In this document: positions 5,422 through 22,177 of the stretch, piece by piece
How positions within the stretch are numbered: the first letter of the stretch is position 1
Layout: each line of letters opens with the position of its first letter
Virus record (IMG/VR): IMGVR_UViG_3300033052_000121
Span: 1 to 23,078 of that record
Strand: one strand, 5' to 3'
DNA length: 23,078 nucleotides
From: a virus
Notes under the pieces: model-generated
Told to the model about the DNA's origin: nothing
The model's database searches: none
Seen by the model: only the letters and a program-made list of their open reading frames with translations
Made by a program: the position numbers and the translations under genes

Positions 5422-7647
5422 ATGGCACGCGTAAATACCAACCAGACCAATTTCACCGCCGGCGAGATCTCCCCGAAGTGCTACGGCCGCGTCGACGTCT
5501 CGCGCTACCAGAACGGTGCAGCCGCCCTACCCAACTGCGTGGTCAACGTCCACGGCGGGGCGGAGCGCCGGCCCGGGTCCAAGTTCATTGCCGTGACCAA
5601 GGACTCCTCGAAGCGCTCGCGCCTGGTGCCGTACATCTTCAATACCACGCAGGCGTACATCCTGGAATTCGGCCACCTGTACATGCGGGTGTATGCCCAG
5701 AGCAGCGGCCAGATCCTCAAGGGCGGCGTTCCCTATGAGATCGCCACGCCCTACACCGAGGACATGCTGGCCGAGATGGACTACACCCAGGGTGCCGACA
5801 CGATGTTCCTCTTCCATCGCGCGGTGCCCATCCACATCCTGCAGCGCATCGCCGCCGACTTCTGGGCGCTCAAGCCTGCGCCGATCACGGTCATGCCGTT
5901 CGATGAGGTCGGCCACACCTTCCCCTTCGTTCTGACGCTTTCCGCGACCACCGTGGGGGCCGGCCGGACCGCTACCCTCGCTGCCCCGAACAATGCGTTC
6001 ATCCAGAGCGACGTTGGGCGCCGCATTGCCTACCAGGCGGGTGTGGCCCTGATCACCGGATACAGCGGTGGCGCCAGCGTCACCGTCGAGATCCAGAATC
6101 CCTTCCCTGTCGCCGCGCTGCCGGCGAACGAATGGCGACTGCTGGACTCCCCGCAGGTCCTGATCACGCCCTCGAGTAAAGATCCGATTGGCGGCGGATG
6201 CACACTGACGACCGCGGTCGAGGAAACCGGCGCGCCTGACGAGCCCCCGGTGATGATCGGCGTCGACGTTTGGCGCCCTGAAGACGTGGGCAAGTTCGTC
6301 CGCATCAACGGCGGCATGGTGCAGATCACCTCCTACCAGGATTCGTACACCGTCCACACCATCATCAAGGAGGAGCTGTCGTCGACCGTGGCTTCGCCTG
6401 CGAACGCCTGGACCCTCGAGGGGGCGGTCTGGAACAGCGGCAGCGGTTATCCAGGCACCGGCGCTCTCTTCGAGCAGCGCCTGGCGGTGGCCGGCTCGCC
6501 GAGCTACCCGCAAACGGTCTGGGGCAGCCGCATCGGCCTGTTCTACGACTTCACCATCGGCACCAACGCCGACGACGCTTTCAGCTTCTCCCTGCCCTCG
6601 ACCGGCCAGATCAACCCGATCCTACGCATGATCACGGCTAAGGCGCTGATGCCGCTGACCTATGGCGGCGAATACACGATGAGCGGCGGCGGCGACGAGC
6701 CGATCACCCCTACCAACGTCAAGGCGCCGAGCTCCTCGGTCTACGGTTGCAACCACGTCAAGCCGCTGCGCGTCGGAAACGAGGTCCTCTTCGTGCAGCG
6801 CGCCGGCCGGAAGATCCGCTCGCTGGCCTACCGCATCGAGTCGGATACCTACACGGCGCCCGACCTCACCGTGCTGGCGGAGCACATCACCACGTCCGGG
6901 ATCGTGGACATGACCTACCAGCAGGAACCCTATTCGCGGGTCTGGTGCGTGCGTGCCGACGGCAAGATGGCTGTCCTCACCCTCGACCGCGAGGAAGGTG
7001 TCGTCGCGTGGTGCCCGGAGCACACGGACGGTCTATACGAAGCCTGCGCCTCGATCCCGAATGCCACCGGCGACGAGGTGTGGTGCATCGTCCAGCGGAC
7101 CATCGGCGGCCAGGTGAAGCGCTATGTCGAGCGATTCGAGCCGACCTTCTACACGGACAGCGGGATCGTCGGCACCGACCCGGCCGGGAAATCGGTTTGG
7201 GCCGGCCTCGGCCACCTGGAAGGCAAGGAGGTCGCGGTGCGCGCCGACGGCGTCTACCTGGGCCTGTTCGCGGTTACCGGGGGCGAGATCGAGCTGCCGC
7301 GTACGGCGCAGGACGTGCAGATCGGCCTCCCCTTCACCAACAGCGTCACGCTGCTGCGTCCCGAGATCCAGACCGGCGAGGGCAGCATCCAAGGTACCGC
7401 GCAGCGCGTGCACGAGGTCTCGTTGCTGTTGATGGAGACCATCGGCTGCAAGATCAACGGCGAGGAGATCGCCTTCCAGGAGTTCGGAGACAAGATCCTC
7501 GACTACGCCCCGGACACCTTCTCCGGGTTCAAGCGCGGCGGCCTCACCGAGTGGTCGCGCGGGAATGAGCAGGTCACCGTGACCCAGGACGAGCCGTACC
7601 CCTTCCACCTGCTTGCGGTCGTTCGCAGGCTCACCGCCAATAGCTGA
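5422..7647 (+). CDS. Tail tubular protein B (T7 gp12-like nozzle)
   Basis: The product has 741 residues; T7 gp12 has 794. It would form the hexameric nozzle through which DNA and internal proteins leave the virion. The N-terminus NQTNFTAGEISPKCYGRVD, then RYQNGAAALPNCVVNVHGGA and ERRPGSKFIA (to about residue 60), is the characteristic start of this family. Further segments, such as LFEQRLAVAGSPSYPQTVWGS (about 350-370) and the beta-rich body, fit the known propeller-like fold. The start lies nine bases after protein A, preceded by AAGG (5411-5414). The stop is seven bases before the acetyltransferase start. Certainty of the family is high. Confidence 0.93.
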   Translation: MARVNTNQTNFTAGEISPKCYGRVDVSRYQNGAAALPNCVVNVHGGAERRPGSKFIAVTKDSSKRSRLVPYIFNTTQAYILEFGHLYMRVYAQSSGQILKGGVPYEIATPYTEDMLAEMDYTQGADTMFLFHRAVPIHILQRIAADFWALKPAPITVMPFDEVGHTFPFVLTLSATTVGAGRTATLAAPNNAFIQSDVGRRIAYQAGVALITGYSGGASVTVEIQNPFPVAALPANEWRLLDSPQVLITPSSKDPIGGGCTLTTAVEETGAPDEPPVMIGVDVWRPEDVGKFVRINGGMVQITSYQDSYTVHTIIKEELSSTVASPANAWTLEGAVWNSGSGYPGTGALFEQRLAVAGSPSYPQTVWGSRIGLFYDFTIGTNADDAFSFSLPSTGQINPILRMITAKALMPLTYGGEYTMSGGGDEPITPTNVKAPSSSVYGCNHVKPLRVGNEVLFVQRAGRKIRSLAYRIESDTYTAPDLTVLAEHITTSGIVDMTYQQEPYSRVWCVRADGKMAVLTLDREEGVVAWCPEHTDGLYEACASIPNATGDEVWCIVQRTIGGQVKRYVERFEPTFYTDSGIVGTDPAGKSVWAGLGHLEGKEVAVRADGVYLGLFAVTGGEIELPRTAQDVQIGLPFTNSVTLLRPEIQTGEGSIQGTAQRVHEVSLLLMETIGCKINGEEIAFQEFGDKILDYAPDTFSGFKRGGLTEWSRGNEQVTVTQDEPYPFHLLAVVRRLTANS

Positions 7648-7654
7648 GGTACCC

Positions 7655-8113
7655 ATGGAAATTCGAGTAGCAACACTGGACGACCTGCCGCGCATCCTCG
7701 AGCTCGGCGAGCTGCTGCACCAGGAGAGCCCACGCTGGGCCCGTCTTTCGTTCAACCGGGCCAAGGCCGCCCACTTCATCGCCCACCTGATCCTGGAGCC
7801 GACCGGCGTGGTGTTCGTGGCCGAGCACGGCGGCCTGGTAGTGGGCGGGATCGCCGGTATGGCCACCGCCCACTGGTCGAGCGACGACGTGGTCGCGCAG
7901 GAGGTGAGCTTCTTCATGGCGCCGGAAGCGCGCGGGCGCATGGCCGCGGTGCGGCTGATCTGCGCGCTCCGGGCCTGGGGCGAGATGCGCGGGGCGAAGT
8001 GGTTACAGGCGGGCACGTCGACCGGGCTGGACCCGGAGCGTACCGCAGGGCTTTACGAGCAGCTGGGATTCTCCCGCTGCGCAATTGGACTGGAGGTTGA
8101 ATATGGGAATTGA
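7655..8113 (+). CDS. GNAT-family N-acetyltransferase within the virion genes
   Basis: The product has 152 residues, a normal length for a single GNAT domain. Such enzymes move the acetyl group of acetyl-CoA to an amine. Visible parts are the first strand and helix (EIRVATLDDLPRILELGELL), the central strand FVAEHGGLVVGGIAGM (about 54-69), the strand EVSFFMAPEARGRMAAVRLI (about 83-102) with an R-x-R/G pyrophosphate-binding turn at R93-G94-R95, and a C-terminal GLYEQLGF (132-139) typical of the family. The ATG at 7655 has TGAGG eight bases upstream. It is translated between nozzle and ejection proteins and overlaps the next gene by 11 bases. GNAT genes do occur in this place in related podoviruses. 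The substrate is unknown; a virion or host protein is a reasonable guess. Confidence 0.85.
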   Translation: MEIRVATLDDLPRILELGELLHQESPRWARLSFNRAKAAHFIAHLILEPTGVVFVAEHGGLVVGGIAGMATAHWSSDDVVAQEVSFFMAPEARGRMAAVRLICALRAWGEMRGAKWLQAGTSTGLDPERTAGLYEQLGFSRCAIGLEVEYGN

Positions 8114-8570: not shown

Positions 8571-10591
8571 GGATCCCGACTGGCAACTTCGGCAACGTCG
8601 TCGCCGAGCCGCAACGGCAGGCCCAGGTGCGCAGCAGCGGCGCCGTCGGCCAGGCGCTGGGCAACGTGGCGAACGCCCTGGGCGGCGTGGCGCAGGACAT
8701 GCAGGACGTGGAGCGCGAGCGGCAGCAGGCCGAACTGAAGAAGCAGCGCTCGCAGGACGGCGTCACCCTCGCTACCCTGAACAATGATCTGTACGACCTA
8801 CACGACGAGGTCAGCCGTAGTGTGACCGAGGGCAAGCTGCCGGCTGGACAGGCGATTGCTGAGTTTAAGCGGCGGACCGGCGAAATCACGGGTGAGCGCA
8901 CGAAGGATATGACGCCTGACCGCCGCCAGGTCATCGATGAGCACCTTCTCCGAGCCACCGGCACGCTGGAGCGCAACCTCAACGGCGTCGTGCTGAAGCG
9001 CACCCAGCACGAGACCGGGGCGAATCTGGGCACGATGAAGGAACAGCTCGGACGCGCTGCGATGCGCAACCTGCCTGAGGCTGTCAACCAGTGGAATACG
9101 GCCGTCGACGCGATGGGCGTGGCGGCAGGCTGGGACGCCGAGAAAATCGCCGTCGAGAAGCAGTCTTTCTTGGAGACCTCGACCTTCAACTTCGCCAACG
9201 CCACGCTTGAGGGCGCCGCAGCGACCGGCAACGCCGACCTGGTGCGCGCCGCGCGCGCCAAAGTGGAAGGGCCGGAGGGCGAGGCCATCGATCCTGCGCG
9301 CCGTACCGCCCTGATCACGAAGGCCTACGGCTACGAGCAGGGGATCGCCGCCGCCAGCGTGCGCGAGCAAGAGCGCCTGAAGCGCGAGCAGGAGGCACGC
9401 GAGAACAAAGGCCGGGACGCCTACAAGGATGCGCAGGCCCTGGTGCTAAACGGCCGCTACCTGTCGACCGAGTACATTTCCGAGCTCTCCGCCATCACCG
9501 CCGGGACCAGCGCGGCGCCCGCCGTGCAGGAATTGGTGCGATCGCAGGGAGCCGTCGCCGGTTTCGCTTCCCTCCCCCTCTCTCAGCAGACCGCTACCAT
9601 CGAGCGCCGGCGCGCCGCCGGGTCGACCCCGGGCGTGGGTGTGTCCGCCGATCAGGAGCAGATGACGGCCGCCATGGAGCGAATCCGCGAGGGCAGCATC
9701 CGGGCATACGCTGAGAATCCGTGGACCGCTGCCCAAGAGCGCGGCGTCATCGCGCGCGCGCCTGCCATCCAGATGAACGACCTCGCGGGCGCCCAGGCGG
9801 TGCTGGCCGAGCGCATGAAGCAGATCGCCACCGTGGAAGCCGCGGCGGAGCGCAAGATCTCGCCCCTGCAGCCGCAAGAGGCCGAGCAGATCGGACGCCT
9901 GGTGCAGGCCCTGCCCCCGGACCAGCAGTCGGCGGCCCTGGCCACCTTCGGCAAGATGATCGGCGACGCCGACCGTCTGGCCGCGCTGGCGCGCCAAATC
10001 GATGCCAAGGACAAGGTACTCGGCACTGCCATGATCATCGGTGACCTGCAGACGACCCAGGGCCGCTACCTCAGCGAGCTGGTCATCAAGGGCGCGCGCG
10101 CGATCAAGGACAAGTCGATCACGATGGACGAGCGCAAGGAAACCGGCTGGCGCGGCGCGATCGCCAACGAGATCGGCGACGCTTTCCCCAACCAGGAAGT
10201 GCGCGAGAAGATGATCGACGCGGCCTACTACGTCCAGGCAGGCTTCGCTGCCGAGGGCGGCGGCGCCGACACCCGCCGAGCGGTGCGCATGGTGGCTGGC
10301 CGGATCGTGGACCGCAACGGCAGCCGGATCCCGCTCCCCCGGGGGATGGAGGAAGGCGACTTCGAGAAGCGCATTTCGTCAATCAAACCGGTCGACCTGG
10401 CCGCGCAGGCGCCCGGCGGCAAGGTCCTCGTTGGCAAAACGGCCGTGCCGCTCGATCAATTCGTCAATTCCCTTCCTGATGCCGCCCTGGTGCATGCTGG
10501 CCAAGGCCGCTACAACATCCGCGCCGGCGTGGGCCTGGTGACCAACAGCCAGGGCAAGCGCATCACAATCGAGGTACGCAATGGCAATTGA
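8567..10591 (+). CDS. Internal virion protein (T7 gp15-like ejection protein)
   Basis: The product has 674 residues (T7 gp15 has 747). It begins MRIPTGNFGNVVAEPQRQAQ, a start common to large internal proteins of podoviruses, and is almost wholly helical and charged: coiled-coil-like stretches at about 45-75 and 265-290 and many Gln/Glu/Arg-rich helices. There is no signal peptide or membrane segment. It probably forms a tube section spanning the periplasm during DNA entry. The start at 8567 is chosen for the GGAGG at 8556-8560 and the ATGA overlap with the preceding gene. It overlaps the next gene by 11 bases. The assignment depends on position, size and N-terminal pattern, since these proteins diverge fast. 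Confidence 0.7.
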   Translation: MRIPTGNFGNVVAEPQRQAQVRSSGAVGQALGNVANALGGVAQDMQDVERERQQAELKKQRSQDGVTLATLNNDLYDLHDEVSRSVTEGKLPAGQAIAEFKRRTGEITGERTKDMTPDRRQVIDEHLLRATGTLERNLNGVVLKRTQHETGANLGTMKEQLGRAAMRNLPEAVNQWNTAVDAMGVAAGWDAEKIAVEKQSFLETSTFNFANATLEGAAATGNADLVRAARAKVEGPEGEAIDPARRTALITKAYGYEQGIAAASVREQERLKREQEARENKGRDAYKDAQALVLNGRYLSTEYISELSAITAGTSAAPAVQELVRSQGAVAGFASLPLSQQTATIERRRAAGSTPGVGVSADQEQMTAAMERIREGSIRAYAENPWTAAQERGVIARAPAIQMNDLAGAQAVLAERMKQIATVEAAAERKISPLQPQEAEQIGRLVQALPPDQQSAALATFGKMIGDADRLAALARQIDAKDKVLGTAMIIGDLQTTQGRYLSELVIKGARAIKDKSITMDERKETGWRGAIANEIGDAFPNQEVREKMIDAAYYVQAGFAAEGGGADTRRAVRMVAGRIVDRNGSRIPLPRGMEEGDFEKRISSIKPVDLAAQAPGGKVLVGKTAVPLDQFVNSLPDAALVHAGQGRYNIRAGVGLVTNSQGKRITIEVRNGN

Positions 10592-12851
10592 AGACCTGTT
10601 CCAGAACGGCACCGACAAGGTACTGGACGACCGTGTGGCGCGGCCGCTGCCCGAGCGCCCGGAACCGCGCTCCTTCGGCGCCAACCTGTGGGGGGCGATC
10701 TCCGCCGCTCCTAAAGGCGTGGGCGCCGGGGCGAACGAGTCGGCCGGCTTTTTCTCCGACATCTTGGGCGCTTATAGCGAAGTGCAGGCCGGCTACGCCC
10801 GGCAACTCGATCCCGCGCTGCTGCTCGACGCTCAGGCGGCCGAGAAGGCGCGAGCGGACGGAGCGGGCTCGCGGGCACGCATCGACAGTGGCGCGGCCTT
10901 CAGCACCGACCTCGGCACCGGCTTCCGCGCCACCGCGCGCACCTTCGCGCCAGATCCGCAGAGCGCCGGCCAGGCCGAGCAGCTGCTGTTCGGCCTCACC
11001 CGATTCGCCACCAAGGCGGTGGGCTATTCGCTGGCAGCCGGGCCAGTACCGGGTGCGGTGCTGACCGGTACCGACGAGGGCATGACCGAGGCGGACCGGC
11101 TGAAGGCCCACGGCGTCGACATCGACACCCGCACGAAGGTGGGCGCCGTCTCCGGGGTCGCTGCGGGGGCCTCGGTCGCGCTGCCCGTCGCTGGCAAAAC
11201 GCTGGCACAAACCGCTGGCCTGGTGGTGGCCGGGGGCCCGGGCGGCTTCATTGCGCAGCAGGCGGCCAGCAAGGCGATCCTCGAAAACGCTGGCTACGAG
11301 AAGCTGGCGGACCAGTACGACCCATTCGACCCGGTCGGGCTGGTCGTCTCCACCCTGGTACCCGCCGGGTTCGGGGCGTACGCGCTGCGCGGCGCGAAGG
11401 CCCGGCCGCAGCCGGCAGCGGATCCGGCGGCCGCCCGCCAACTGGCCAGCATGGGCGGCAACGAGCGTATGGCCCTCCGGTACGACGATCCCCGCCTGGA
11501 CGCCTACGCGGTGACGGCGGCGCAGCGCGAGGGCATTCCTCCCGAGGCGCTGCTGGCTATCAAGAACGTCGGCGAGCGCTCCGGGTCGACCGCGGTGTCG
11601 CCCAAGGGCGCCAAGGGCGTGATGCAGTTCATGGACGACACCTGGACGGCCTACGGCAAGGGAGATCCGCGCGACCCCACCGCATCGATCGACGGTGCCG
11701 CGCGCTTCATGAAGGACCTGATCGCTCAGTACGACGGCGACGTGCGCGCGGCGATCGCGCACTACAACGGCGGCGGCAAGGCCGGTAAGGCGGTGAAGGA
11801 AGGCCGCGCGGCGCCGTCGAAGGAAACCCGGGCCTACCTGGAGCGCACCGACGCATTCATCGCCGAGCGCGCCGGTACCGAGGCCGGGCGCACCGCGGCG
11901 ACGGATCCGGATATCGTCGCCGCTGCCCGGGTGCAGCTGGTGCGCGAGACCATCGAATCCTGGAACCTGCGGGATCCGGCCGACGCCGCCGGCGCCCAGC
12001 AGCACCTGGAAGCCGTCCTGCGCGCAGCCGACCAGATTGGCGCCGGCACGCGCGTGGATATCGGCGCAACCATCCCCCTCGACACTCTCAGCCAGGCCCG
12101 CCTGCTCGACAACCTGGTCGAGCGCCTCGAGCAGTCCCGCGCCGAGCTGCTACCCGAAGCGGCCAACTTGGCCGACCCGGGCGTAGTCGCGCCGCTGCGG
12201 GCCGAGATCACCCAGCTCGAGCAGTCCCGGCCAGCCACCACCGACGAGGCGCTGCGCACGCTGGCCAAAGAAATCCAGGCCGCGCAAGGCGTCAGCTACA
12301 AGGCCGCGCTGTCAGCGGCGAAGAAGGAAACCGCAACCCGCCTGCAGGACGTCGAAACGCAGATCGGGCGCCTCCGCCAGCAGCTCGACGCCCACCGCGC
12401 CGCCGCCGAGACGCACAAGCAGATCGCCGACCTCGACGGCCAGATCGCCAGGGTGAGAGCGGACCGGGCCGCGATCGACGCCCCTACCCCACGCCCGGCT
12501 GCGCTGGCGGTCAAGCAGGCGGTCTCCCAGCTGCAGGAGGCACGCCCTCAGTTTGGAAAGCCAAAAGCGGAAACGAAGCCTGCGGATTTACCAGCGGCCG
12601 GAAACCCAGCACCGGCGCGGTCCGCGGTGGAAAAGGCCGGTGGCGCGGATGCCCCTGCGGCTTCTAGCCTGGACGCGCAGAGCGCCGAGATCGCGAGCCT
12701 GTCGCCCGACATGATGGTGCAGCTGGAAGGGATGGACACGCCGATGCGGCTGGCGGACGCCCTAGAGGCGGTGAAGGCGGAAGCGGCGCGAGAGGTGCAG
12801 GATGCGCCGCTGCTGCAGGTGGCTGCCGAGTGCTTCCTACGAAGCGCCTAA
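10581..12851 (+). CDS. Internal virion protein with lytic transglycosylase (SLT) domain, T7 gp16 N-part-like
   Basis: The product has 756 residues. Residues about 145-275 are hydrophobic and Gly/Ala-rich with possible membrane-active helices. Residues about 311-415 are an SLT-type domain: IPPEALLAIKNVGERSG holds the likely catalytic Glu332, followed by AVSPKGAKGVMQFMDDTW, matching the family's S-x-x-G-A-x-G-x-M-Q motif, and AIAHYNGGG for the A-x-Y-N-x-G motif. This enzyme would cleave the murein glycan strand to let the ejection channel pass. The C-terminal third is a Gln/Ala/Arg-rich coiled coil (about 500-635), and the final PLLQVAAECFL is a common end of such virion proteins. In T7 the transglycosylase is part of a 1318-residue gp16; here the equivalent seems to be divided between this gene and the one at 13041. 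ATG 10581 has GAGG at 10571-10574. Confidence 0.85.
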   Translation: MAIEDLFQNGTDKVLDDRVARPLPERPEPRSFGANLWGAISAAPKGVGAGANESAGFFSDILGAYSEVQAGYARQLDPALLLDAQAAEKARADGAGSRARIDSGAAFSTDLGTGFRATARTFAPDPQSAGQAEQLLFGLTRFATKAVGYSLAAGPVPGAVLTGTDEGMTEADRLKAHGVDIDTRTKVGAVSGVAAGASVALPVAGKTLAQTAGLVVAGGPGGFIAQQAASKAILENAGYEKLADQYDPFDPVGLVVSTLVPAGFGAYALRGAKARPQPAADPAAARQLASMGGNERMALRYDDPRLDAYAVTAAQREGIPPEALLAIKNVGERSGSTAVSPKGAKGVMQFMDDTWTAYGKGDPRDPTASIDGAARFMKDLIAQYDGDVRAAIAHYNGGGKAGKAVKEGRAAPSKETRAYLERTDAFIAERAGTEAGRTAATDPDIVAAARVQLVRETIESWNLRDPADAAGAQQHLEAVLRAADQIGAGTRVDIGATIPLDTLSQARLLDNLVERLEQSRAELLPEAANLADPGVVAPLRAEITQLEQSRPATTDEALRTLAKEIQAAQGVSYKAALSAAKKETATRLQDVETQIGRLRQQLDAHRAAAETHKQIADLDGQIARVRADRAAIDAPTPRPAALAVKQAVSQLQEARPQFGKPKAETKPADLPAAGNPAPARSAVEKAGGADAPAASSLDAQSAEIASLSPDMMVQLEGMDTPMRLADALEAVKAEAAREVQDAPLLQVAAECFLRSA

Positions 12852-13034
12852 GGCAGCGAGCCAGAAGATGCCCGCGAGTACCAGGCCGGCGCCCGTGATG
12901 CAGCCCATGATCTTCAGGTACGCCACGAACGCCTGCAGGCCGTGGCGCCAGCTACCGGAGCCGGCCCAGACCGTGAGCGGGATGATCAAGGTCATCACCG
13001 CAATTATTCCTAACATTTTGACAAAAGAGAGCAT
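12837..13034 (-). CDS. Small two-helix membrane protein, antisense to the late operon
   Basis: This 65-residue ORF (ATG at 13034 down to TAG at 12837) fills the only sizeable gap in the ejection-protein block. It has two clear hydrophobic segments: residues about 5-24 (LGIIAVMTLIIPLTVWAG) and about 42-63 (IMGCITGAGLVLAGIFWLAAL), joined by a short polar loop with WRHGLQAF. The plus strand of the gap has no credible gene, and so clean a two-span pattern is unusual for random antisense reading. It overlaps the 3' end of the transglycosylase gene by 15 bases and stops short of the next gene. The ribosome site is poor (GGGGC just upstream), and I see no clear promoter on this strand. It could be a holin-like or lysis-control protein, a superinfection-exclusion protein, or spurious. 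Function unknown. Confidence 0.5.
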   Translation of the reverse strand: MLSFVKMLGIIAVMTLIIPLTVWAGSGSWRHGLQAFVAYLKIMGCITGAGLVLAGIFWLAALGAS

Positions 13035-13040
13035 GCCCCG

Positions 13041-15536
13041 ATGAAACCACAGTGCAGAGCAGCTGTCCAGCAGGCCGCCGGCCGGAACTTGACCGACGCC
13101 GAAATCAGGAAGATCGATGACCGGATCAGCGCCACGATGCGCAACATGGCCCGGGCCGACCCGGCCGGCTGGCGCGGCAAGTCCGCCGACCAGCGCGTGC
13201 TGGACGCCGTGCAGCAGGCCATGGCCGATATCCAGGCCGAAGCGGCGCTCAAGGTGCAGCGTGCGCAGCTCCAGGTCGTCAAAACCGCCGCCATGGAGAC
13301 CCGGGTCGGCGACCTGATGGCGTCCTACGCGATCGGCCGCAGCAAGGCCCTGGTCAAGGAGATGGAGCTGACCGACAACTATGCCGAGGGCATCAAGCGC
13401 GAGACGATGAGCCACCTGATGGATCTGCTCGACGCGGTCGAAAGCAAGCAAGGCACCACCGCCGGCCGCAAGGCGCTCATGTTCCTCTTCGATGCCCAGA
13501 ACCCAGGCATGACGCGCGACCTGGCGATCGAGATCTACGGCAACGGCGCCGCCGGCACCGGCAACGCCCTGGCGCAGAAGGCGGCAGTGGCCTGGCTGGA
13601 ATCGATCGAGCAGCTGCGTCAGCGCTTCAATGCCGGCGGCGGCGACGTCGGCAAGCTGGAATACGGCTATCTGCCGCAGCCCCATGATCAGGGGCGCGTG
13701 CGCGGCAGCGGCGATGCGGCGGCGCGCGCCAAGTGGGTGCAGGACACTCTGCCGCTGCTCGACCGCAACCGCTACTTCCAGGAAGACGGCACCCGCCTGA
13801 CGGACCAGCAGCTGGCCGACGTGCTGAACGCTGCCTGGGACACCATCGCGACCGGCGGCCTGAACAAGATGACGCCCGGCCAGGGCGGCGGCAGCGGCGC
13901 GCGCGCGAACGCGGGCAGCGACAGCCGCCAGATCCACTTCAAAGACGCCGAGGCCTACCTCGCCTACATGGGCAAGTACGGCGGCGGCAGCATGTACGAC
14001 GCGATGCTGGGGCACATCGGAGGCCTGTCGCGCGACATCGCCCTGGTCGAGCGCTACGGCCCCAACCCCGCCCAGCAGATGAAGCTGCAGTTCGACCTGG
14101 CAGAGAAGGCGGACATCGGCGTCGAGCGCTCCTTCGGCATGACCCCACAGAGCTACTGGGACCTGATCAGCGGCAAGACCGGGATGGCCGAAAACGGCAA
14201 CCTGGCCAGGGTCGCGCAGGACGCCCGCAATATCCAGGTGTTCGGCAAGCTGGCGGGCGCGGTGCTGTCGAGCGTGACCGACATGGGCAGCTACTTCGTC
14301 ACCGCTGGCTTTAACAAGCTCTCCTACTGGGAGGCGCTGAAGAACATCGGCAAGCAGCTCGATGGCGACACCCGCGACTTCCTTACCATGCATGGCGTCA
14401 TCGCGGATTCGATGATCTCGAACCTGAATCGTTGGAGCGGCGACAACATCAAGAACAACTGGAGCGGCCGCCTGGCTAACTCCACGATGAAGTTGTCGCT
14501 GATGAACGCCTGGACCGACACGCTGCGCCGCGCATTCTCCATGACGATGATGAACGGCCTGGCCAAGCTGTCGAAAACGGAATGGGCGGCGCTGTCCGGG
14601 TGGGACCGGTCGCACCTCACCCGCAAGGGCATCACCGAGGCCGACTGGGAAGTGATCCGCGCCGGCCAGCTGACGAACTACCAGGGCGCCGACTTCCTCA
14701 CGCCCGAGGCCATCCACGCGAGCGGCGACGCGCGCTCGAGCGAGGTGGCGGCCAAGGTCATCGGCCTGATCACGGACGAATCCGAATACGCGGTCATCAA
14801 CCCCGACCTGGCCACGAAGGCGGCAGCCAGCGCGGGCGGCCTATCGCGCGGCACGGTGCGCGGTGAGCTGGCGCGCTCCGTCATGCAGTTCAAGAGCTTT
14901 CCGATCGCGATGATCTCGCGGCACTGGCGCCGGATGCTGGACGCGCCGCAGGGTGTTGACGGCGCGCCCGTGCTGGCCAATCGCCTGATGTACGGCGCCG
15001 CCATGATGACGTCGCTCACCGCGCTCGGCGCCATCGCCTACCAGAACAAGCAGATCGTTCAGGGCAAGGACCCGCTCGACATGACTACCCCGAAGTTCTG
15101 GACTCGCGCCATGGCCCAGGGCGGCGGCATGGGCATCGTCGGCGACTTCCTGCTGACGGACCCCACCACCAACCCGGGCGACTCCACGGCCAACGCGATC
15201 AAGAACGTGGCCGGTCCGACCGTGGGCAGCGTCTTCGATATCGGCTACAAGCTGGGCGTGGAGAACCTCTACGAAGCAGCGAACGGGGACGACACCCACT
15301 TCGTCGCCGAGGGCATCCGGACGGCCCGCAGCCACCTCCCCTACGTCAATCTCTGGTACGCCAAGGCGGCACTTGACCATGCTGGCCTACATGCTCTACA
15401 AGAGAACGTAAGCCCCGGCTACCTGTCGCGGATGCAACAGCGTGCGCAGCGGGACTGGGAACAGGACTACTGGTGGACACCAGGCACTGGCGCGCCTGAG
15501 CGCGCCCCGGACATGACAGCGATCGGAGGAAACTGA
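13041..15536 (+). CDS. Large internal virion protein (T7 gp16 C-part-like ejection protein)
   Basis: The product has 831 residues and is mostly helical. The N-terminal region (RNLTDAEIRKIDDRISATMR) and the centre (MYDAMLGHIGGLSRDIALVE at about 318-337, FGKLAGAVLSSVTDMGSYFV at about 401-420) resemble the C-terminal part of large podovirus ejection proteins. A hydrophobic segment near 653-671 (YGAAMMTSLTALGAIAYQ) may insert in a membrane. It has no transglycosylase motif; that activity is in the gene before it. ATG 13041 is preceded by AAGAGAG (13024-13030). Its stop overlaps the start of the small terminase by one base. I assign it by size, order and pattern. The role is probably the inner-membrane end of the DNA translocation channel. 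Confidence 0.75.
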   Translation: MKPQCRAAVQQAAGRNLTDAEIRKIDDRISATMRNMARADPAGWRGKSADQRVLDAVQQAMADIQAEAALKVQRAQLQVVKTAAMETRVGDLMASYAIGRSKALVKEMELTDNYAEGIKRETMSHLMDLLDAVESKQGTTAGRKALMFLFDAQNPGMTRDLAIEIYGNGAAGTGNALAQKAAVAWLESIEQLRQRFNAGGGDVGKLEYGYLPQPHDQGRVRGSGDAAARAKWVQDTLPLLDRNRYFQEDGTRLTDQQLADVLNAAWDTIATGGLNKMTPGQGGGSGARANAGSDSRQIHFKDAEAYLAYMGKYGGGSMYDAMLGHIGGLSRDIALVERYGPNPAQQMKLQFDLAEKADIGVERSFGMTPQSYWDLISGKTGMAENGNLARVAQDARNIQVFGKLAGAVLSSVTDMGSYFVTAGFNKLSYWEALKNIGKQLDGDTRDFLTMHGVIADSMISNLNRWSGDNIKNNWSGRLANSTMKLSLMNAWTDTLRRAFSMTMMNGLAKLSKTEWAALSGWDRSHLTRKGITEADWEVIRAGQLTNYQGADFLTPEAIHASGDARSSEVAAKVIGLITDESEYAVINPDLATKAAASAGGLSRGTVRGELARSVMQFKSFPIAMISRHWRRMLDAPQGVDGAPVLANRLMYGAAMMTSLTALGAIAYQNKQIVQGKDPLDMTTPKFWTRAMAQGGGMGIVGDFLLTDPTTNPGDSTANAIKNVAGPTVGSVFDIGYKLGVENLYEAANGDDTHFVAEGIRTARSHLPYVNLWYAKAALDHAGLHALQENVSPGYLSRMQQRAQRDWEQDYWWTPGTGAPERAPDMTAIGGN

Positions 15537-15907
15537 TGAGGCAGGATCAATACGAGAAATTGCAGGAATTGACCGAGAAGCTGACCGACGCCTTCATCGG
15601 CGAGGCGGATCCGGCCGTATGGCCTGGCCACGGGGTGGCGATCGCCGCGATGGACCAGCAGACCCGTGGTGACCGCTACTGGTGCAAGAAGAACGCCGCG
15701 GCGACCCTGTCCGTGATCGTGCGCACCACCAGCCTGATCGGCATCATCCAGCAGCGCAGCCTGGCGGGCGTGGCGGGCGGGGTCCCGGCGCCCGAGCAGG
15801 AACAGGAAGACGACAGCCTGGACGCCGAAGTGAAGGCCGCGGAGAAGGAAGCGAAGCGCCTGCTCGACAAGATGCAGAAAAGCATGACGAAGGCCCATGG
15901 AAAATAG
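15536..15907 (+). CDS. Putative small terminase subunit (TerS)
   Basis: The product has 123 residues. Its N-terminal half is helical, with PAVWPGHGVAIAAMDQQTRG and RYWCKKNAAATLSVIVRT (about 64-81); the C-terminus is a very charged helix (about 98-123). It lies directly before the large terminase, overlaps it by 11 bases, and has an excellent ribosome site (GGAGGA 15525-15530). In T7-like phages the small packaging subunit (gp18) holds this place. The WPG and RGDRYW segments recur in proteins found before podovirus terminases, as far as I recall. No helix-turn-helix is obvious, so the call rests mainly on position and size. Confidence 0.6.
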   Translation: MRQDQYEKLQELTEKLTDAFIGEADPAVWPGHGVAIAAMDQQTRGDRYWCKKNAAATLSVIVRTTSLIGIIQQRSLAGVAGGVPAPEQEQEDDSLDAEVKAAEKEAKRLLDKMQKSMTKAHGK

Positions 15908-17537
15908 GGTCAGCTTCCTGACGTTCTTCCTGATGTGGGCCAAGCTGCAGGGGTGGAAGGTTCCGCTCCTGCACGTGCGCATCTGCCAGTGGCTGGAGAA
16001 CTGCGCCGACCCGGTGCGCGTGCTGATGGTGTTCCGTGGCGCGTCGAAGTCGACGACCTACGCTGTTTACAAGGCCTGGAAGCTGTACCGGGATCGCAAC
16101 CGCCGATCGCTGATCTGGGCGGCCGACGGCGACTTGGCCAAGAAGCTCACCCGCGACACCATCAACGTGCTGCGCCGGCACCCGCTGTGCGCCGGCATGC
16201 TGCCGACCAAGCCGGGCGCGCAGACGTTCTGGGTGAACGGGTCGACCGACGCGCGAAACGCCAGCATGAACGCGGTGGGCGTGAACCAGAATGCGACAGG
16301 CTCGCGCGCCGACGACATCGACTACGACGACATCGAGGTCCCGAAAAACATCAAGACCGCCGAGGCCCGGGCCAACCTGAGGATGAAGATCGAGGAATCC
16401 ACCTTCATCGCGGTGCCGGGCTCCCAGGAAACCTACATCGGCACCCCGCACACCCACGACTCGATCTATCCGGAGTTGGTGGCCGCCGGCGCCGCTTTCC
16501 TGAAGATCCCCCTCTTCGAGAGCGGCGTCCGCTACGAGGACACCAGTACCCGGACCCGGTACCAGTTCGACTTCACGCCGGGCGAGGATGGCCTGTACGT
16601 CATGGTCGGGATCCACAAGTTCGCGCGTCTCCTGGTCGAGGGGCAGGACTACCGGGTCGAGGGCAACGAGGTGGTGCTGGCCAAGCCGCCCGGCGCCGTT
16701 CTGGACATCTACGCGCACTGCGCATGGCCAGAACGCTTCACGCGCGAGGACGTAATCAAGCGCCGGAAGAAGACCCGCACCCTCAACTACTGGGACAGCC
16801 AATACATGCTCGAAGCGAAGCCGATCAACGAATGCCGCCTCGACCCGGCGAAGATCAAGGCCTACGACCTGCAGCCGACGCTCGCGCGCGCGAACCGTCA
16901 GGTGCGTATGGAGCTGGGGAAGGTCCAGATCGTGAGCGGCCGGGCCTATTGGGACCCGTCCTTGGGCAAGAAGACCAGCGATGCGTCCGCCTTCTCGGTC
17001 GTCTACGACGACACCCTGGGGAATCACTACTGGCACGTGTGCGAGGGGCTGACCGGGGAATTCGCCGAGTTCAGCGATGCCCGCAACACCGAGATCATCG
17101 GCGGCCAGGTGCTGCAGGCCTGCGACATCATCCAGAAGGCGAACATCCTGCACGTCTATGTGGAGGTGAACAGCGTCGGCTCGTTCGCCGGGAAGCTGCT
17201 GCAGCGCGCTCTCAAGCAGCGCCGGCTGAACTGCGGTGTGACGGAGATTGTCCAGAACGCCAACAAGAACGAACGGATCCTGGGCGCGCTCGAAGCGCCG
17301 ATGAAGTCGGGCGTGCTGTGGGCGCACGTCGATGTCCTGAACGGCCCGCTCTGGGACCAGATGAAGGACTGGAACCCCAAGGTAAAGGAGCAGCCGGACG
17401 ACTACCTGGACAGCGGCGCTGGTGCGATCGAGCGGGCGCCAGTGCGCATTAACCATTTGGTCGGGATTCCGACCGGCAATACACGGGAAGATTGGCGCCA
17501 TTCAACGGGCGTCTTCGAGGTGACGCTCGAAACCTGA
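15897..17537 (+). CDS. terL: Large terminase subunit (T7 gp19-like packaging ATPase/nuclease)
   Basis: The product has 546 residues (T7 gp19 has 586). It drives DNA into the prohead through the portal and cuts the concatemer. The ATPase part has a Walker A-like motif FRGASKST at 46-53, the GSRADDIDYDDIE block at 135-147 (Walker B with the catalytic acid at its end), and the ETYIGTPHTHDSIY motif (178-191) for coupling. After LNYWDSQYMLEAKP (about 296-309), which is strongly conserved in this group, follow RLDPAKI and the nuclease part, opened by YWDPSLGKKTSDASAF (351-366) with Asp353 as the likely first metal ligand. Residues about 212-272 look like an extra beta-rich segment. ATG 15897 overlaps the small subunit gene by 11 bases. 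The frame is intact. Confidence 0.95.
   Translation: MENRVSFLTFFLMWAKLQGWKVPLLHVRICQWLENCADPVRVLMVFRGASKSTTYAVYKAWKLYRDRNRRSLIWAADGDLAKKLTRDTINVLRRHPLCAGMLPTKPGAQTFWVNGSTDARNASMNAVGVNQNATGSRADDIDYDDIEVPKNIKTAEARANLRMKIEESTFIAVPGSQETYIGTPHTHDSIYPELVAAGAAFLKIPLFESGVRYEDTSTRTRYQFDFTPGEDGLYVMVGIHKFARLLVEGQDYRVEGNEVVLAKPPGAVLDIYAHCAWPERFTREDVIKRRKKTRTLNYWDSQYMLEAKPINECRLDPAKIKAYDLQPTLARANRQVRMELGKVQIVSGRAYWDPSLGKKTSDASAFSVVYDDTLGNHYWHVCEGLTGEFAEFSDARNTEIIGGQVLQACDIIQKANILHVYVEVNSVGSFAGKLLQRALKQRRLNCGVTEIVQNANKNERILGALEAPMKSGVLWAHVDVLNGPLWDQMKDWNPKVKEQPDDYLDSGAGAIERAPVRINHLVGIPTGNTREDWRHSTGVFEVTLET
17460..17476 (+). repeat. 17-bp sequence repeated at 3202-3218 (copy 2, inside the terminase gene)
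   Basis: This copy is identical to 3202-3218 over 17 bases. Here it encodes Val-Gly-Ile-Pro-Thr-Gly near the terminase C-terminus. It lies 101 bases upstream of the tailspike start, as the other copy lies upstream of the capsid gene. Confidence 0.55.
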
Positions 17538-17577: not shown

Positions 17578-20388
17578 GTGCCCGTATCAGCCCAAGAAAC
17601 CGTATTTCGCCATATCGGCAACGGTATCACTGTCTCGTTCCCCTTCGGCTGCCAGGTCCTGCAAGCATCCGACCTCAAGGTCTATATCAACGATGCTGAG
17701 GTGACTTCCGGCTTCACCGTCGCTGGTATCGGCGTGCCCACGGGCGGCACCGTCACGTTCGATGTCCCACCGTCGGGTCTCGCCCAGGTGCGCCTCGAGC
17801 GCGACATCGTGCTGGAGCGCCTCACCGACTACCAGCAAAACGGCGACTTCCTCGCCAGGGTTGTCAACCCAGACTTCAACCGCCTTTGGATGGCGCTGCA
17901 GCAGCACCTGGGCATTCTGCGTCGCGCGTTGGTGGTGCCGAAATCCGATCTATCGGAGCCTGCGCCTCTGCCGAAAATTGCTGATCGTGCAAATAAGTTG
18001 CTGAGTTTCGACGAGCTCGGCAATCCCATTGCAGTCGCGCCGGCCGCACAGTCTGCCACCGCGGCATTGATCGAGCTGGCATCGGCCGCCGGATCCGCTC
18101 TGATCGGATATATCCACTCTGGTATTGGGGCAGTCAAGCGCTCGCTTCAAGAAAAGCTGCGCGACACCATCCACGTCAAGGACTACGGTGCGAAGGGCGA
18201 CGGCGTAACCGACGACACCCTGGCGATCGAGGCCGCAGGCAAGGCGCTTAAAAGTGGACAGACCTTGCACCTGGGCGACGGGACCTACCTCATCTCATAC
18301 AAAGGCGCCGCCTATTCCTCCGTCTACGGCAATGCCGTAATCGACCTGCTGAACAAGACCGACATCAGCATCTTGGGCGAGGGCGCCACTATCAAGGTCG
18401 TGAACCACGACATCACCGCCAAGGGCGGCTTGCGCTTCGCTAACTTCAAAGGCTGCAAGCGAGTGCGGATTTCGGGCATCAACTTCGACATGACGTTCTT
18501 GGGCAGCAATACCAGCGGCCAGTTCTATCCGTTCTGCGGCGCGATCACGGCGCTGGACGAGGACGCGCCGGCGCCCGACTTCAATGGCCTGAACAGCGAT
18601 TTTACGATCGACGGCTGCAGCTTCAAGCTGTATCACCCTGCGGGAAACTGGCAGACCACTGCGAACCCGTACCTGGGCGACGGGAACAACGGCTTCAAGC
18701 TCTTCAGCATTTTCGTGTCGGGCCCCTTCACTCCGACCGAGTATGACAACCAGTGCCGCAACGTCGTGGTGGATAACTGCACATGGCGCAAGGGCCATAA
18801 CGGGTATGGCATCTGGTTCTGGGCTTGGAACAACTGCCGCGTGACGAGCTGCGTCGTCGAAGACTGGGTAGCCAAATATTCCGACAACACCGGCAGTTTC
18901 GCCGGTGGCGGGGTTGCATGGGTTCGCCATATCCCGTTCCGTACCGCCGGCATGGTCGTCTCGGGGAACCAGTTCCGCGCAAAACCAACGTCCGAGCGAA
19001 TCGGTGCGTTTGCCGGCAAAGCACAGTTCTATGTGCAAGCGAACAATATCGGTGCGGCCAACTTGGCAAAGGGTGAGACGGTCGTATCAGGCAACAACAT
19101 AATCATGGGCGCCGGCGGCCAGGGTCTCGGCGATGAAGTGCTGTTCTTCAACACCTTCGGCACGCTGATCGTTTCTGGCAATACCATCGATGGCCACGAG
19201 GGCACGGTCACTACGGACGGTGGGTCCTTGGTGCTGAATTACTCACCAGGTGACACGGGTGGTCAAGGTGAATCCTCGCTGATCTTCACGGACAACACGA
19301 TTGGCACTGCTTACCTCGGCTCCGGGATCTTGTTCGTCAACGGCTCGAACGAAAGCGAAGCCAACCGACGCTGCAAGCACCTCGTTGTGACCGGCAACAC
19401 GATGGCGCGAGGCGACTTCTTCCTGCGCATGACCAGCTACGCGTACAAGACCTACGAGGGCGTTCGCTACGCGATCATCGCGGACAACGTGATCGACATG
19501 AATGGCGGGGCGCTGTTCCCTCCCCCGAGCGGCAACAATTACGGCATTCATACTGCATCGCTGGCCACCGACATCATCGTCATTTCAGGTAACGCATTTG
19601 CGAACACCACTGAGGCTATCAAATCGCCGGCGTACGCCAACAGCGCAAGCGCAAATATTCGGATTTGGGGGAACAGCTACAAAAACATCACGACGCCCTA
19701 CAACGCCGCGGCAAACCTGTTCCCTGCTGAGAAGTTCGATAGCGCGCCGGTGGTTTCGGCCGTCGGCAGCGACACCACCGTGCAGCCATATGTGTCGGCG
19801 CGTAACACCACGGGCAATTCCGAGGTAAAGCTATTCCAGCAGTCCACGACCTCGTACCTCATGGCGACTAACCAGCTTGAGGTCTACGCTGGCGGCGCGT
19901 CGCAGCTCAATCTGGGTGCCAACTATCTCCGGCCGACTGCCGACAATACCAAGACGCTTGGCCAGGCGGCCACGCGCTGGTCCACTGTGTACGCCGGAAC
20001 GGGCGCCATCAATACCTCGGACGAGCGCGCGAAGCAGCAGGTGCAGACGATCGACGTCCGCGTCCTCAGGGCTTGGGCCAAGGTCGGGTATGCACAGTAC
20101 AAGTTCAATGATGCTGTAGAGGCCAAGGGCGACGGCGCACGCTGGCACATCGGCGTCATCGCGCAGCGCGTCAAGGAAGCGTTCGAATCGGAAGGGCTCG
20201 ACGCTTTCTCCTTCGGGCTCCTCTGCTACGACGAATGGGACGACCAGCACGCGTCTGCGCTGGGCGAGGACGGCAACCCAACGGCGGAAGAGATCCTGGT
20301 GCAGCCAGCAGGCAACCGCTACGGGATCCGCTATGAAGAAGCGCTCGCGCTGGAATGCGCATACCTCCGTTCACGTCTCACGGCATAA
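17578..20388 (+). CDS. Tailspike: T7-fibre-type anchor, beta-helix (pectate-lyase-like) body, self-cleaving S74 chaperone
   Basis: The product has 936 residues and starts at GTG, chosen for CAGGAG at 17566-17571. Residues about 1-125 resemble the virion-binding N-terminus of T7 gp17 (strands such as DLKVYINDAEV, then VTFDVPPSGLAQVRLERD). RANKLLSFDELGNPIAVAP (137-155) is a common linker. From IHVKDYGAKGDGVTDDT (198-214), a signature of pectate-lyase-3-type right-handed beta-helices, repeated strands with VSGN and ADNV turns run to about 700. The end is a Peptidase_S74 chaperone: WSTVYAGTGAINTSDERAK, with the predicted self-cleavage between Ser814 and Asp815, and WHIGVIAQRV with His857. The spike probably forms a trimer that binds or degrades a capsule or other surface polysaccharide. 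The substrate cannot be read from sequence. GC content drops in the beta-helix part, as usual for exchanged receptor-binding modules. Confidence 0.93.
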   Translation: MPVSAQETVFRHIGNGITVSFPFGCQVLQASDLKVYINDAEVTSGFTVAGIGVPTGGTVTFDVPPSGLAQVRLERDIVLERLTDYQQNGDFLARVVNPDFNRLWMALQQHLGILRRALVVPKSDLSEPAPLPKIADRANKLLSFDELGNPIAVAPAAQSATAALIELASAAGSALIGYIHSGIGAVKRSLQEKLRDTIHVKDYGAKGDGVTDDTLAIEAAGKALKSGQTLHLGDGTYLISYKGAAYSSVYGNAVIDLLNKTDISILGEGATIKVVNHDITAKGGLRFANFKGCKRVRISGINFDMTFLGSNTSGQFYPFCGAITALDEDAPAPDFNGLNSDFTIDGCSFKLYHPAGNWQTTANPYLGDGNNGFKLFSIFVSGPFTPTEYDNQCRNVVVDNCTWRKGHNGYGIWFWAWNNCRVTSCVVEDWVAKYSDNTGSFAGGGVAWVRHIPFRTAGMVVSGNQFRAKPTSERIGAFAGKAQFYVQANNIGAANLAKGETVVSGNNIIMGAGGQGLGDEVLFFNTFGTLIVSGNTIDGHEGTVTTDGGSLVLNYSPGDTGGQGESSLIFTDNTIGTAYLGSGILFVNGSNESEANRRCKHLVVTGNTMARGDFFLRMTSYAYKTYEGVRYAIIADNVIDMNGGALFPPPSGNNYGIHTASLATDIIVISGNAFANTTEAIKSPAYANSASANIRIWGNSYKNITTPYNAAANLFPAEKFDSAPVVSAVGSDTTVQPYVSARNTTGNSEVKLFQQSTTSYLMATNQLEVYAGGASQLNLGANYLRPTADNTKTLGQAATRWSTVYAGTGAINTSDERAKQQVQTIDVRVLRAWAKVGYAQYKFNDAVEAKGDGARWHIGVIAQRVKEAFESEGLDAFSFGLLCYDEWDDQHASALGEDGNPTAEEILVQPAGNRYGIRYEEALALECAYLRSRLTA

Positions 20389-20398
20389 GGGCGCAACC

Positions 20399-20767
20399 AT
20401 GATCGACAAACCACCGCACCCACCCGCGAGCGAATGGGCGGAATTCGTCACCTGGGCATGGATGATCGGCATCTCCTTGCTGGGCGGCTTCGTATCGTTC
20501 GTCCGGAAAGTGCGTTCCAACCACGCGCGCGCCTGGAACTTCACCGAGTTCGTCGGGGAGATCTTCACGGCCGCCCTCGCCGGCATCATCACTGCAAACC
20601 TCTGCCAGTGGCTCGGCTATCCGCCATCCCTGACCTACGCTCTCACCGGCATCGGCGCTCACATGGGCAGCCGCGCGCTGTTCAAGCTCGAAGCGCTGTT
20701 CGACACGAAGTTTCCCGCAACCCCACTAGCGAAGGATCAAGACCATGAGCATCACCAGAATAATTGA
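20399..20767 (+). CDS. Holin (LydA/superfamily III-like)
   Basis: The product has 122 residues. It has a hydrophilic start (MIDKPPHPPASEWAEF), then a membrane helix at about 17-35 (TWAWMIGISLLGGFVSFV), a basic loop (RKVRSNHARAWN), and two further hydrophobic stretches at about 53-67 (IFTAALAGIITANLC) and about 71-90. The form, with GIGAHMGSRALFKLEALF after the last helix, fits phage holins of the LydA type. The C-terminus is a charged His/Asp/Glu tail. It would form holes in the inner membrane to release the endolysin. ATG 20399 follows the tailspike stop by 10 bases with AAGG (20387-20390); an in-frame ATG at 20333 lies within the tailspike and is less likely. It overlaps the endolysin gene by 23 bases. 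Confidence 0.82.
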   Translation: MIDKPPHPPASEWAEFVTWAWMIGISLLGGFVSFVRKVRSNHARAWNFTEFVGEIFTAALAGIITANLCQWLGYPPSLTYALTGIGAHMGSRALFKLEALFDTKFPATPLAKDQDHEHHQNN

Positions 20768-21290
20768 AGGCGTGCTCGATCGCGAGAAAGGCTACGTCAA
20801 CAACCCGAAGGACGCCGGCGGCGAGACGATGTGGGGAATCACGGTCGAGACGGCGCGTCGCAACGGCTATACCGGACCGATGCGTGACCTCTCGCGGGAC
20901 CAAGCCGCCAAGATCTACCTACACGAATATGTGATCGCGCCGGGCTTTATGCGGATTGCGGCCATCAGCATGCCCATCGCCGAAGAGCTGGTCGACTCCG
21001 GTGTGAACTGCGGCACATCCCGTCCCGGGCCCTGGCTGCAGCGCACCCTGAATCTGCTCAACCGCGAGGCGAAGCTGTTTCCCGACCTGGTCGTGGATGG
21101 CGTGCTGGGCCCGGCCACGCAGGCGGCGCTGATGTACACACTCCGACACCGCGGGGCCGACGGCGAAAAGGTGCTTCTGCGTTGCCTCAACAGCCTGCAG
21201 GGCGCCTATTACATGGAAATCACCGAGCGCCGGGCGGCGAACGAGGAGTTTTTCTTCGGATGGATTCTCAACCGCGTGGAGGCAGCATGA
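20745..21290 (+). CDS. Endolysin: GH108-type lysozyme with C-terminal peptidoglycan-binding region
   Basis: The product has 181 residues, a normal size for the family. Residues about 5-95 are the catalytic glycoside hydrolase 108 domain: LDREKGYVNNPKDAGGETMW holds the catalytic Glu14 in the family's E-G/K-G-Y motif, followed by GITVETAR and DLSRDQAAKIYLHEY. Residues about 100-178 match the peptidoglycan-binding type 3 domain that usually follows it (LVVDGVLGPATQAAL, then RAANEEFFFGWILNRV). There is no signal peptide, so export depends on the holin. The start at 20745 has AAGGA (20732-20736). The gene overlaps the holin before it and the next gene by ATGA. Confidence 0.92.
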   Translation: MSITRIIEGVLDREKGYVNNPKDAGGETMWGITVETARRNGYTGPMRDLSRDQAAKIYLHEYVIAPGFMRIAAISMPIAEELVDSGVNCGTSRPGPWLQRTLNLLNREAKLFPDLVVDGVLGPATQAALMYTLRHRGADGEKVLLRCLNSLQGAYYMEITERRAANEEFFFGWILNRVEAA

Positions 21291-21811: not shown

Positions 21812-21836
21812 AGGACGGCCGGGAAGGCAGCTCAAT

Positions 21837-21847
21837 AGTGTTACACT
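21837..21847. promoter_or_regulatory. Palindrome and extended -10-like sequence before the last late gene
   Basis: AGTGT-T-ACACT is a perfect 11-base inverted repeat. It includes TGTTACACT, which resembles an extended -10 element (TG-N-TAnAnT type, four of six core bases). No good -35 is present at the usual distance. It could be a weak promoter with an overlapping operator for the gene that follows, or chance. Confidence 0.3.
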
Positions 21848-22152: not shown

Positions 22153-22153
22153 G

Positions 22154-22177
22154 CCGTTGGTATTTCCGTTGGTATCT
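22154..22177 (+). repeat. Tandem 12-bp direct repeat right after the last late gene
   Basis: CCGTTGGTATTT is followed immediately by CCGTTGGTATCT (11 of 12 identical). It starts two bases after the stop of the small gene. Short TTGGTAT-type direct repeats of this kind are often seen next to attachment sites of tyrosine-recombinase elements, where they can be arm-type integrase sites; that reading is inference here, as no integrase is in the window. Confidence 0.6.

What the first reader, a model, noticed from the sequence alone, without database searches (positions are those of the whole stretch)
12837..13034. Antisense two-span membrane protein in the gap between the two large ejection-protein genes
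The late operon is otherwise packed with overlaps, yet about 190 bases separate the transglycosylase protein from the next ejection protein. On the minus strand this gap holds a complete 65-residue ORF with two clean hydrophobic helices and a short polar loop. Seen: the ORF, its fit to the gap and the helix pattern. Inferred: a small membrane protein that may act in lysis timing or exclusion of other phages, expressed against the late transcript. A weak ribosome site and lack of a visible promoter argue for caution.
Basis: partly seen in the sequence, partly recalled or inferred. Interest (0 to 1): 0.55.

Follow-up and report, generated by a model that had tools for sequence, protein, structure and literature searches.

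The report
Conserved antisense prophage membrane protein gene
A tiny membrane-protein gene, read backwards between two phage genes that help inject viral DNA, is a real and conserved gene; it probably helps a resident phage keep related phages out of its bacterial host, much as the unrelated SieA protein of phage P22 does.

Summary
The minus-strand ORF at 12837-13034 (65 aa) is a conserved protein-coding gene: 24 distinct short-form sequences (window included, down to 41% identity) share the frame without stops, and per-site silent change exceeds replacement change in 213 of 217 pairs. Five further relatives carry a longer homologous form; nine lack gene and gap, and the gapless state needs at least three changes on the tree. 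It lies between two ejection-protein genes of temperate podoviruses related to BcepC6B and epsilon15. The "missing" promoter and ribosome site may be explained: in about half of the short forms a -35-like hexamer lies 17 bp before a weak -10 made by the next gene's first two codons, 5-6 nt before the start codon, implying a leaderless message. The -35 uses a rare alanine codon (GCT in 13 of 18 carriers, 8% usage). Best explanation: a lysogen-expressed moron for superinfection exclusion at DNA entry, working like P22 SieA without detectable relationship to it. Expression and exclusion are inferred, not shown. No credible match in Pfam, PHROGs, NCBIfam or PADLOC.

The parts
12837..13034 (-). antisense membrane-protein gene ('ams', my label), 65 aa, predicted helices 2-26 and 29-64
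13041..13046 (-). candidate -10 hexamer TTTCAT on the minus strand, formed by codons 1-2 (ATG AAA) of the downstream gene; 6 nt before the ams ATG
   Evidence: sequence; TTTCAT in 15 of 24 short forms
13064..13069 (-). candidate -35 hexamer TGGACA, 17 bp upstream of the -10, over codons 8-10 of the downstream gene
10581..12851 (+). upstream neighbour: internal virion protein with SLT transglycosylase domain (position of BcepC6B gp16)
13041..15536 (+). downstream neighbour: virion structural (ejection/pilot) protein, epsilon15/BcepC6B gp17 family, phrog_684

Best explanation
The ORF is a genuine accessory (moron) gene of temperate podoviruses, carried antisense between two ejection-protein genes. 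Shown by computation: it encodes a conserved protein under purifying selection, predicted as two helices (2-26 and 29-64) with a basic stretch between the hydrophobic parts, and it is present or absent as a unit. Supported but not proven: it is transcribed from its own sigma-70-type promoter, whose -35 and -10 lie inside the first ten codons of the downstream ejection gene, giving a message that begins at or within a base or two of the AUG (leaderless, as for lambda cI). The late operon is read in the other direction, so late transcription would run against this promoter and the protein would be made mainly in the lysogen. Inferred: the protein sits in the inner membrane and stops DNA of related superinfecting phages from entering by binding or jamming the ejection-protein conduit, as P22 SieA is thought to do. 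Confidence by step: real gene about 0.97; own promoter and lysogenic expression about 0.65; DNA-entry exclusion about 0.5.
For: Gene: frame without stops in 24 distinct short forms, pN < pS in 213 of 217 pairs; window against L007 pS 0.32, pN 0.055; invariant P19, W23, G27; AlphaFold2 mean pLDDT 91.6, two helices. Moron-like: 8 gapless relatives keep 10-12 bp between the same two genes, a ninth at most about 16 (L053); the genes also abut in phiV10, epsilon15 and BcepC6B; the gapless state needs 3 changes on the tree, all forced by well-supported branches. Temperate: tyrosine integrase in 10 of 14 carrier records (short and long forms together); two carriers lie in bacterial genome records, Caldimonas mangrovi and a Rubrivivax MAG. 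Promoter: -35 match of 5/6 or better at 17 bp in 13 of 24 short forms, 1 of 5 long forms, 0 of 8 gapless and 0 of 3 outgroups with a placed start; summed -35 matches 100 in 23 short-form carriers against mean 80.9 (sd 2.4, max 90) in 1000 synonymous recodings, but 22 against 24.2 in 7 gapless; GCT at Ala8 in 13 of 18 carriers against 8% usage, first of 59 Ala columns, 0 of 7 gapless. No Shine-Dalgarno match of 4 or more bases before the chosen start in 28 of 29 forms. Precedent: P22 sieA is a minus-strand gene with its own annotated promoter right beside ejection gene 16; [quoted passage not shown]).
Against: No expression or exclusion data were available. No detectable relation to SieA, HK97 gp15 or the phiV10 two-helix protein. 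The -10 TTTCAT lacks the usual A at position 2; the consensus scan found 0 promoters and 0 terminators in 12600-13300. 11 of 24 short forms lack a -35 match of 5/6, and in 5 of 24 (L006, L067, L070, L071, L073) the start codon is not 5-6 nt from the next gene's start. In three short forms a GGGG run gives modest anti-SD pairing (-5.4 kcal/mol). Synonymous conservation over the first scored window of the downstream gene is not raised (rank 492 of 522). With relatedness allowed for, short against gapless has only 3 independent pairs and cannot reach significance; the recoding test does not correct for relatedness.
Confidence: 0.5

Rival explanations
1. A lysogenic-conversion moron with another job: a small inner-membrane protein that alters a host transporter, receptor, secretion or stress function, giving the lysogen fitness or blocking receptor-dependent entry rather than acting on the ejection conduit.
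For: Same genetics (promoter signal, accessory presence, temperate carriers). Small membrane proteins often bind host membrane proteins (general knowledge). HK97 gp15 is a 62-aa moron product said to block DNA injection by an unknown mechanism (passage in PMC10883804).
Against: Does not explain why the carriers examined keep the gene at this one place between the ejection genes.
Confidence: 0.3
2. A lysis regulator (antiholin or pinholin-like hairpin).
For: Size and two-helix form; a weak Foldseek match to a predicted 61-aa holin (rank 7, E 1.1).
Against: Antisense to the late operon; separate holin-like 20333-20767 and endolysin-like 20745-21290 genes in the window; gapless state reached at least three times; no fold match with E <= 0.001.
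Confidence: 0.05
3. The antisense transcript itself is the function: RNA complementary to the downstream gene's ribosome site and the upstream gene's 3' end silences late genes in the lysogen.
For: A message starting at 13034 would cover the bases just upstream of the 13041 start; promoter signal.
Against: Selection is on the amino-acid sequence (pN under pS, no stops in 24), which an RNA role does not need.
Confidence: 0.05
4. Chance ORF, or shadow of the overlapping + strand ORF 12802-13044 (80 aa, ATGA overlap with the next gene).
For: That + frame is open in the window and, judged by its ATGA-defined frame, in 15 of 24 short forms; the frame sharing wobble positions has the second lowest pN/pS ratio, 0.74.
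Against: Internal stops in 9 of 24 short forms (in four of these nine the next gene does not start ATGA); no hydrophobic segment; the minus frame has no stops and the lowest ratio (0.60).
Confidence: 0.02

Closest known systems
P22 SieA (superinfection exclusion protein A)
   Same: Minus-strand gene with its own promoter next to the ejection-protein genes of a temperate podovirus; integral membrane protein; accessory (22 of 66 P22-like phages, PMC10883804 section 13); types with an extra N-terminal membrane segment, as in the long form here.
   Different: 164 aa in the P22 record against 65 (long form 93-98) aa here; no detectable sequence relation (hhalign probability 0.5%); lies after gene 16, not between two ejection genes; exclusion proven for SieA only.
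HK97 gp15 moron
   Same: Small (62 aa) moron product in the structural gene region, next to the tape-measure gene; named in PMC10883804 as blocking DNA injection (passage).
   Different: Same strand as the late genes; no detectable sequence relation. The original paper (Cumby 2012) is not held; only its citation was seen.
phiV10/66FD small integral membrane protein after gp17
   Same: Small membrane protein next to the gp17 homologue of related podoviruses; two predicted helices noted in the phiV10 record.
   Different: Plus strand, downstream of gp17; no detectable sequence relation for the phiV10 protein.
lambda cI leaderless mRNA
   Same: Predicted start at or near a 5'-terminal AUG, no Shine-Dalgarno, lysogen-expressed (the last recalled for cI, inferred here).
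   Different: A regulator, not a membrane protein; leaderless state here is predicted only. That cI mRNA is naturally leaderless was read in passages of PMC4965119.

Membership tests
P22 SieA family | sequence homology to SieA | tested here: not met
   hhalign A2 against P22 SieA: probability 0.5%, E 0.11; one SieA sequence only, so a weak test
P22 SieA family | integral membrane protein of about 164 aa with three predicted TM segments | tested here: not met
   65 aa with two hydrophobic segments and two helices; the homologous 95-aa long form is predicted with three helices at moderate confidence (mean pLDDT 73.9)
P22 SieA family | minus-strand gene beside ejection genes | tested here: met
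P22 SieA family | own promoter | tested here: inconclusive
P22 SieA family | excludes relatives at DNA injection | not testable with these tools
   needs plating assays
phage moron | inserted between genes that are adjacent in relatives | tested here: met
   9 gapless relatives; phiV10, epsilon15, BcepC6B with abutting genes
phage moron | own promoter | tested here: inconclusive
   constrained -35 with a weak -10 in about half of short forms; consensus scan 0
phage moron | own terminator | tested here: not met
   0 terminator-like sites in 12600-13300
phage moron | expressed from the prophage | not testable with these tools
   no RNA data held; integrase in 10 of 14 carrier records only shows temperate carriers
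holin/antiholin | co-oriented late lysis gene or match to a lysis family | tested here: not met
   opposite strand; no lysis family among Pfam or PHROG matches; separate holin and endolysin

The most novel reading that the evidence does not exclude
A new family of hairpin proteins that guard a lysogen by jamming the ejection conduit, encoded between the genes of the two conduit proteins they act on, so that lock and target travel together on one recombining segment. It is expressed by a leaderless promoter written into the first ten codons of one target gene.
Probability: 0.3. Interest if true: 0.75.

Novelty: new variant of a known kind. Interest (0 to 1): 0.55.

Why it matters
[quoted passage not shown] If this gene does the same, a second, unrelated and much smaller solution exists in another podovirus lineage and other hosts, with its presumed targets coded on either side, which makes the conduit-blocking idea directly testable. 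It also shows how a gene that annotation would miss (antisense, 65 aa, no ribosome site, promoter inside a neighbour's coding sequence) can be recovered by comparison.

Tried and rejected
Tried and rejected or leading nowhere. (1) The + strand ORF 12802-13044: internal stops in 9 of 24 short forms. (2) Consensus promoter/terminator scan: nothing. (3) Synonymous-conservation window at the start of the downstream gene: not raised, rank 492 of 522; single codons (Lys2, Ala8, Val9) stand out by their codon choice. (4) Phylogenetically independent pairs for the -35: too few. (5) Known families, searched with the window protein or with the 16 members of A1 (long forms not searched): best E-values 0.0019 to DUF6112 (Pfam, 3 of 16 members; for the window protein 10.3 bits against a cut-off of 25), 0.0057 in NCBIfam, 0.022 in PADLOC, 0.035 in PHROGs. 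(6) tblastn of the window protein: none in the phage records or plasmids. (7) 399 genomes of the order of Caldimonas: profile match in 2 of 399; one is Caldimonas itself, the other, G226 (E 3.5e-4, inside a 777-aa frame, no ejection genes in its 3186-base locus), is taken as chance. The downstream gene was found in 4 of 399; in the three besides Caldimonas it starts close behind or overlaps the preceding long open frame, and no copy of the small gene was found. One search had looked at the wrong end of two of these (L079, L080); one search mends that and shows that the L081 row began 5 codons late, so its promoter row is dropped. (8) Viral fold library: 0 matches with E <= 0.001. (9) HK97 gp15 paper not held. 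(10) Paper searches (listings seen) showed no description of this gene; they cover only the held open library and a few term sets.

Rows left out: L021 (no upstream DNA), L049 and L054 (end before the gap), L068 (near copy of L067); L017 and L020 from the gapless set, L017; L029; also L006, L029, L067, L070, L071 and L073. In the tree the rows L028, L029 and L071 are partial. For L057 and L045 an upstream in-frame GTG/TTG was passed over for the ATG 5-6 nt from the next gene.

Full report
What is there. The minus strand of the 189-base gap between 10581-12851 and 13041-15536 holds a 65-aa ORF at 12837-13034. It overlaps the last 15 bases of the upstream gene, and its start codon lies 6 bases from the downstream gene's ATG. 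The neighbours are an internal virion protein with an SLT transglycosylase domain and a virion structural protein of the epsilon15/BcepC6B gp17 family; the gp17 homologue of phage Piluca is annotated as a pilot protein.

Is it more than chance? By length alone, no: the window has 137 ORFs of 60 aa or more. By hydrophobic pattern, yes: of 156 ORFs of 40 aa or more that are not main genes, one has two or more strong hydrophobic segments, and its end is this gene. Conservation decides. A search with the protein itself found 5 relatives. The downstream protein brought 23 loci; of the 22 with upstream DNA, 14 have a 172-190-base gap with the ORF in it and 8 have 10-12 bases and no ORF. The upstream protein, an alignment scan and a bacterial-genome scan raised this to 24 distinct short forms including the window, 5 long forms and 9 gapless loci. 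Carriers found through the protein itself are not a fair sample for prevalence; through the two neighbours alone it is 22 carriers (17 short, 5 long) and 9 gapless of 31 contigs, the window not counted.

Selection. In 217 pairs of the 24 short forms (those with 40-95% protein identity) mean pS is 0.580 and pN 0.349; 213 of 217 have pN < pS. It is the only one of the six frames without stops. The opposite frame that shares wobble positions comes next (ratio 0.74) but has 1.65 stops per pair. Against the nearest relative pS is 0.32 and pN 0.055. The + strand frame with the ATGA overlap has internal stops in 9 of 24 short forms.

Protein. P19, W23 and G27 are invariant in 24, and K6, I17, I18, V22, S26, Y39 and M43 nearly so. 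AlphaFold2 gives two helices, 2-26 and 29-64, mean pLDDT 91.6, pTM 0.62. Basic residues between the two hydrophobic parts (R30 and K37 or K41 in most) suggest a cytoplasmic loop by the positive-inside rule, though K6 near the N-terminus blurs this. Fold search gives no significant match. The five long forms (93-98 aa, gaps of 296-299 bases) align with the short forms over their last part (hhalign probability 96.75%, E 3.1e-10); the L050 protein is predicted with three helices (2-29, 35-56, 62-94) at moderate confidence, mean pLDDT 73.9.

Family and distribution. No credible match in Pfam, PHROGs, NCBIfam or PADLOC, nor of the window protein in 50,697 phage records or 72,556 plasmids. More distant phages examined have the two genes abutting: phiV10, epsilon15, BcepC6B, 66FD, Shamal, YeP5, Piluca, HB2107-3I and ST11-OXA245phi3.2, and three Burkholderiales-order genome loci; most of the 113 phage records with a gp17 match were not opened. 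Carriers are temperate: tyrosine integrase in 10 of 14 records, the four without including three of 17.7-32.3 kb that may be fragments. Two carriers lie in Sphaerotilaceae genome records. On a gp17 tree of 41 rows the gapless state needs 3 changes and the short form 5, so the gene was lost or gained several times.

Expression. On the minus strand the downstream gene's first ten codons read T(T/G)GACA - 17 bp - TTTCAT - 5 or 6 nt - start codon in about half of the short forms. A -35 match of 5/6 or better occurs in 13 of 24 short forms (12 of them with TTTCAT or CTTCAT as -10), 1 of 5 long forms, 0 of 8 gapless and 0 of 3 outgroups with a placed start. Because the protein sequence limits the DNA, the first codons were recoded synonymously with each gene's own usage: observed -35 matches (best of 16-18 bp spacing) in 23 short forms sum to 100 against a mean of 80.9 and a maximum of 90 in 1000 trials; the 7 gapless show nothing (22 against 24.2). 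The effect comes largely from Ala8 being GCT in 13 of 18 carriers, against 8% GCT usage, the highest of 59 alanine columns; the gapless have 0 of 7. Of 29 short and long forms, 28 have no Shine-Dalgarno match of 4 bases before the chosen start. This points to a leaderless message. Against it: the -10 is weak, the consensus scan finds none, 11 of 24 short forms lack a good -35, 5 of 24 have another start spacing, general synonymous conservation there is not raised, the recoding test does not correct for relatedness, and the independent-pair test that does has no power.

Mechanism. A self-promoted, antisense, accessory membrane-protein gene in a temperate podovirus next to ejection genes is the arrangement of P22 sieA. 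[quoted passage not shown] it is carried by 22 of 66 P22-like phages, and two of its three types have an extra N-terminal membrane segment (PMC10883804: abstract, passages, sections 7, 13, 21). The present protein is not detectably its relative. I therefore say that it most likely works like SieA, not that it is a SieA. Lysis control is unlikely (holin- and endolysin-like genes at 20333-21290). Another host-directed moron function remains the main rival.

Noticed in passing
L046 6337-6630, L050 6337-6621, L052 6316-6594, L058 6337-6621, L059 6289-6573 (minus): Longer (93-98 aa) homologues of the antisense gene in a roughly 300-base gap, with an extra N-terminal helix; L050, L058 and L059 have TATACT 7 nt before the start.
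   Followed up: partly
window 7613-8113: An acetyltransferase-like gene (phrog_1249) inside the structural operon.
   Followed up: no
window 15897-17537: The terminase large subunit lies downstream of the ejection genes and before the tail spike; in BPP-1 it lies at the other end of the structural block.
   Followed up: no
window 21811-23078: After the lysis genes the four ORFs tried have no PHROG match at E <= 0.001; content unclear.
   Followed up: no
L030 6485-6625; L033 6459-6626: phiV10 and 66FD carry a plus-strand small membrane protein right after gp17: a possible functional counterpart at another position, not detectably related by sequence (phiV10 only).
   Followed up: partly
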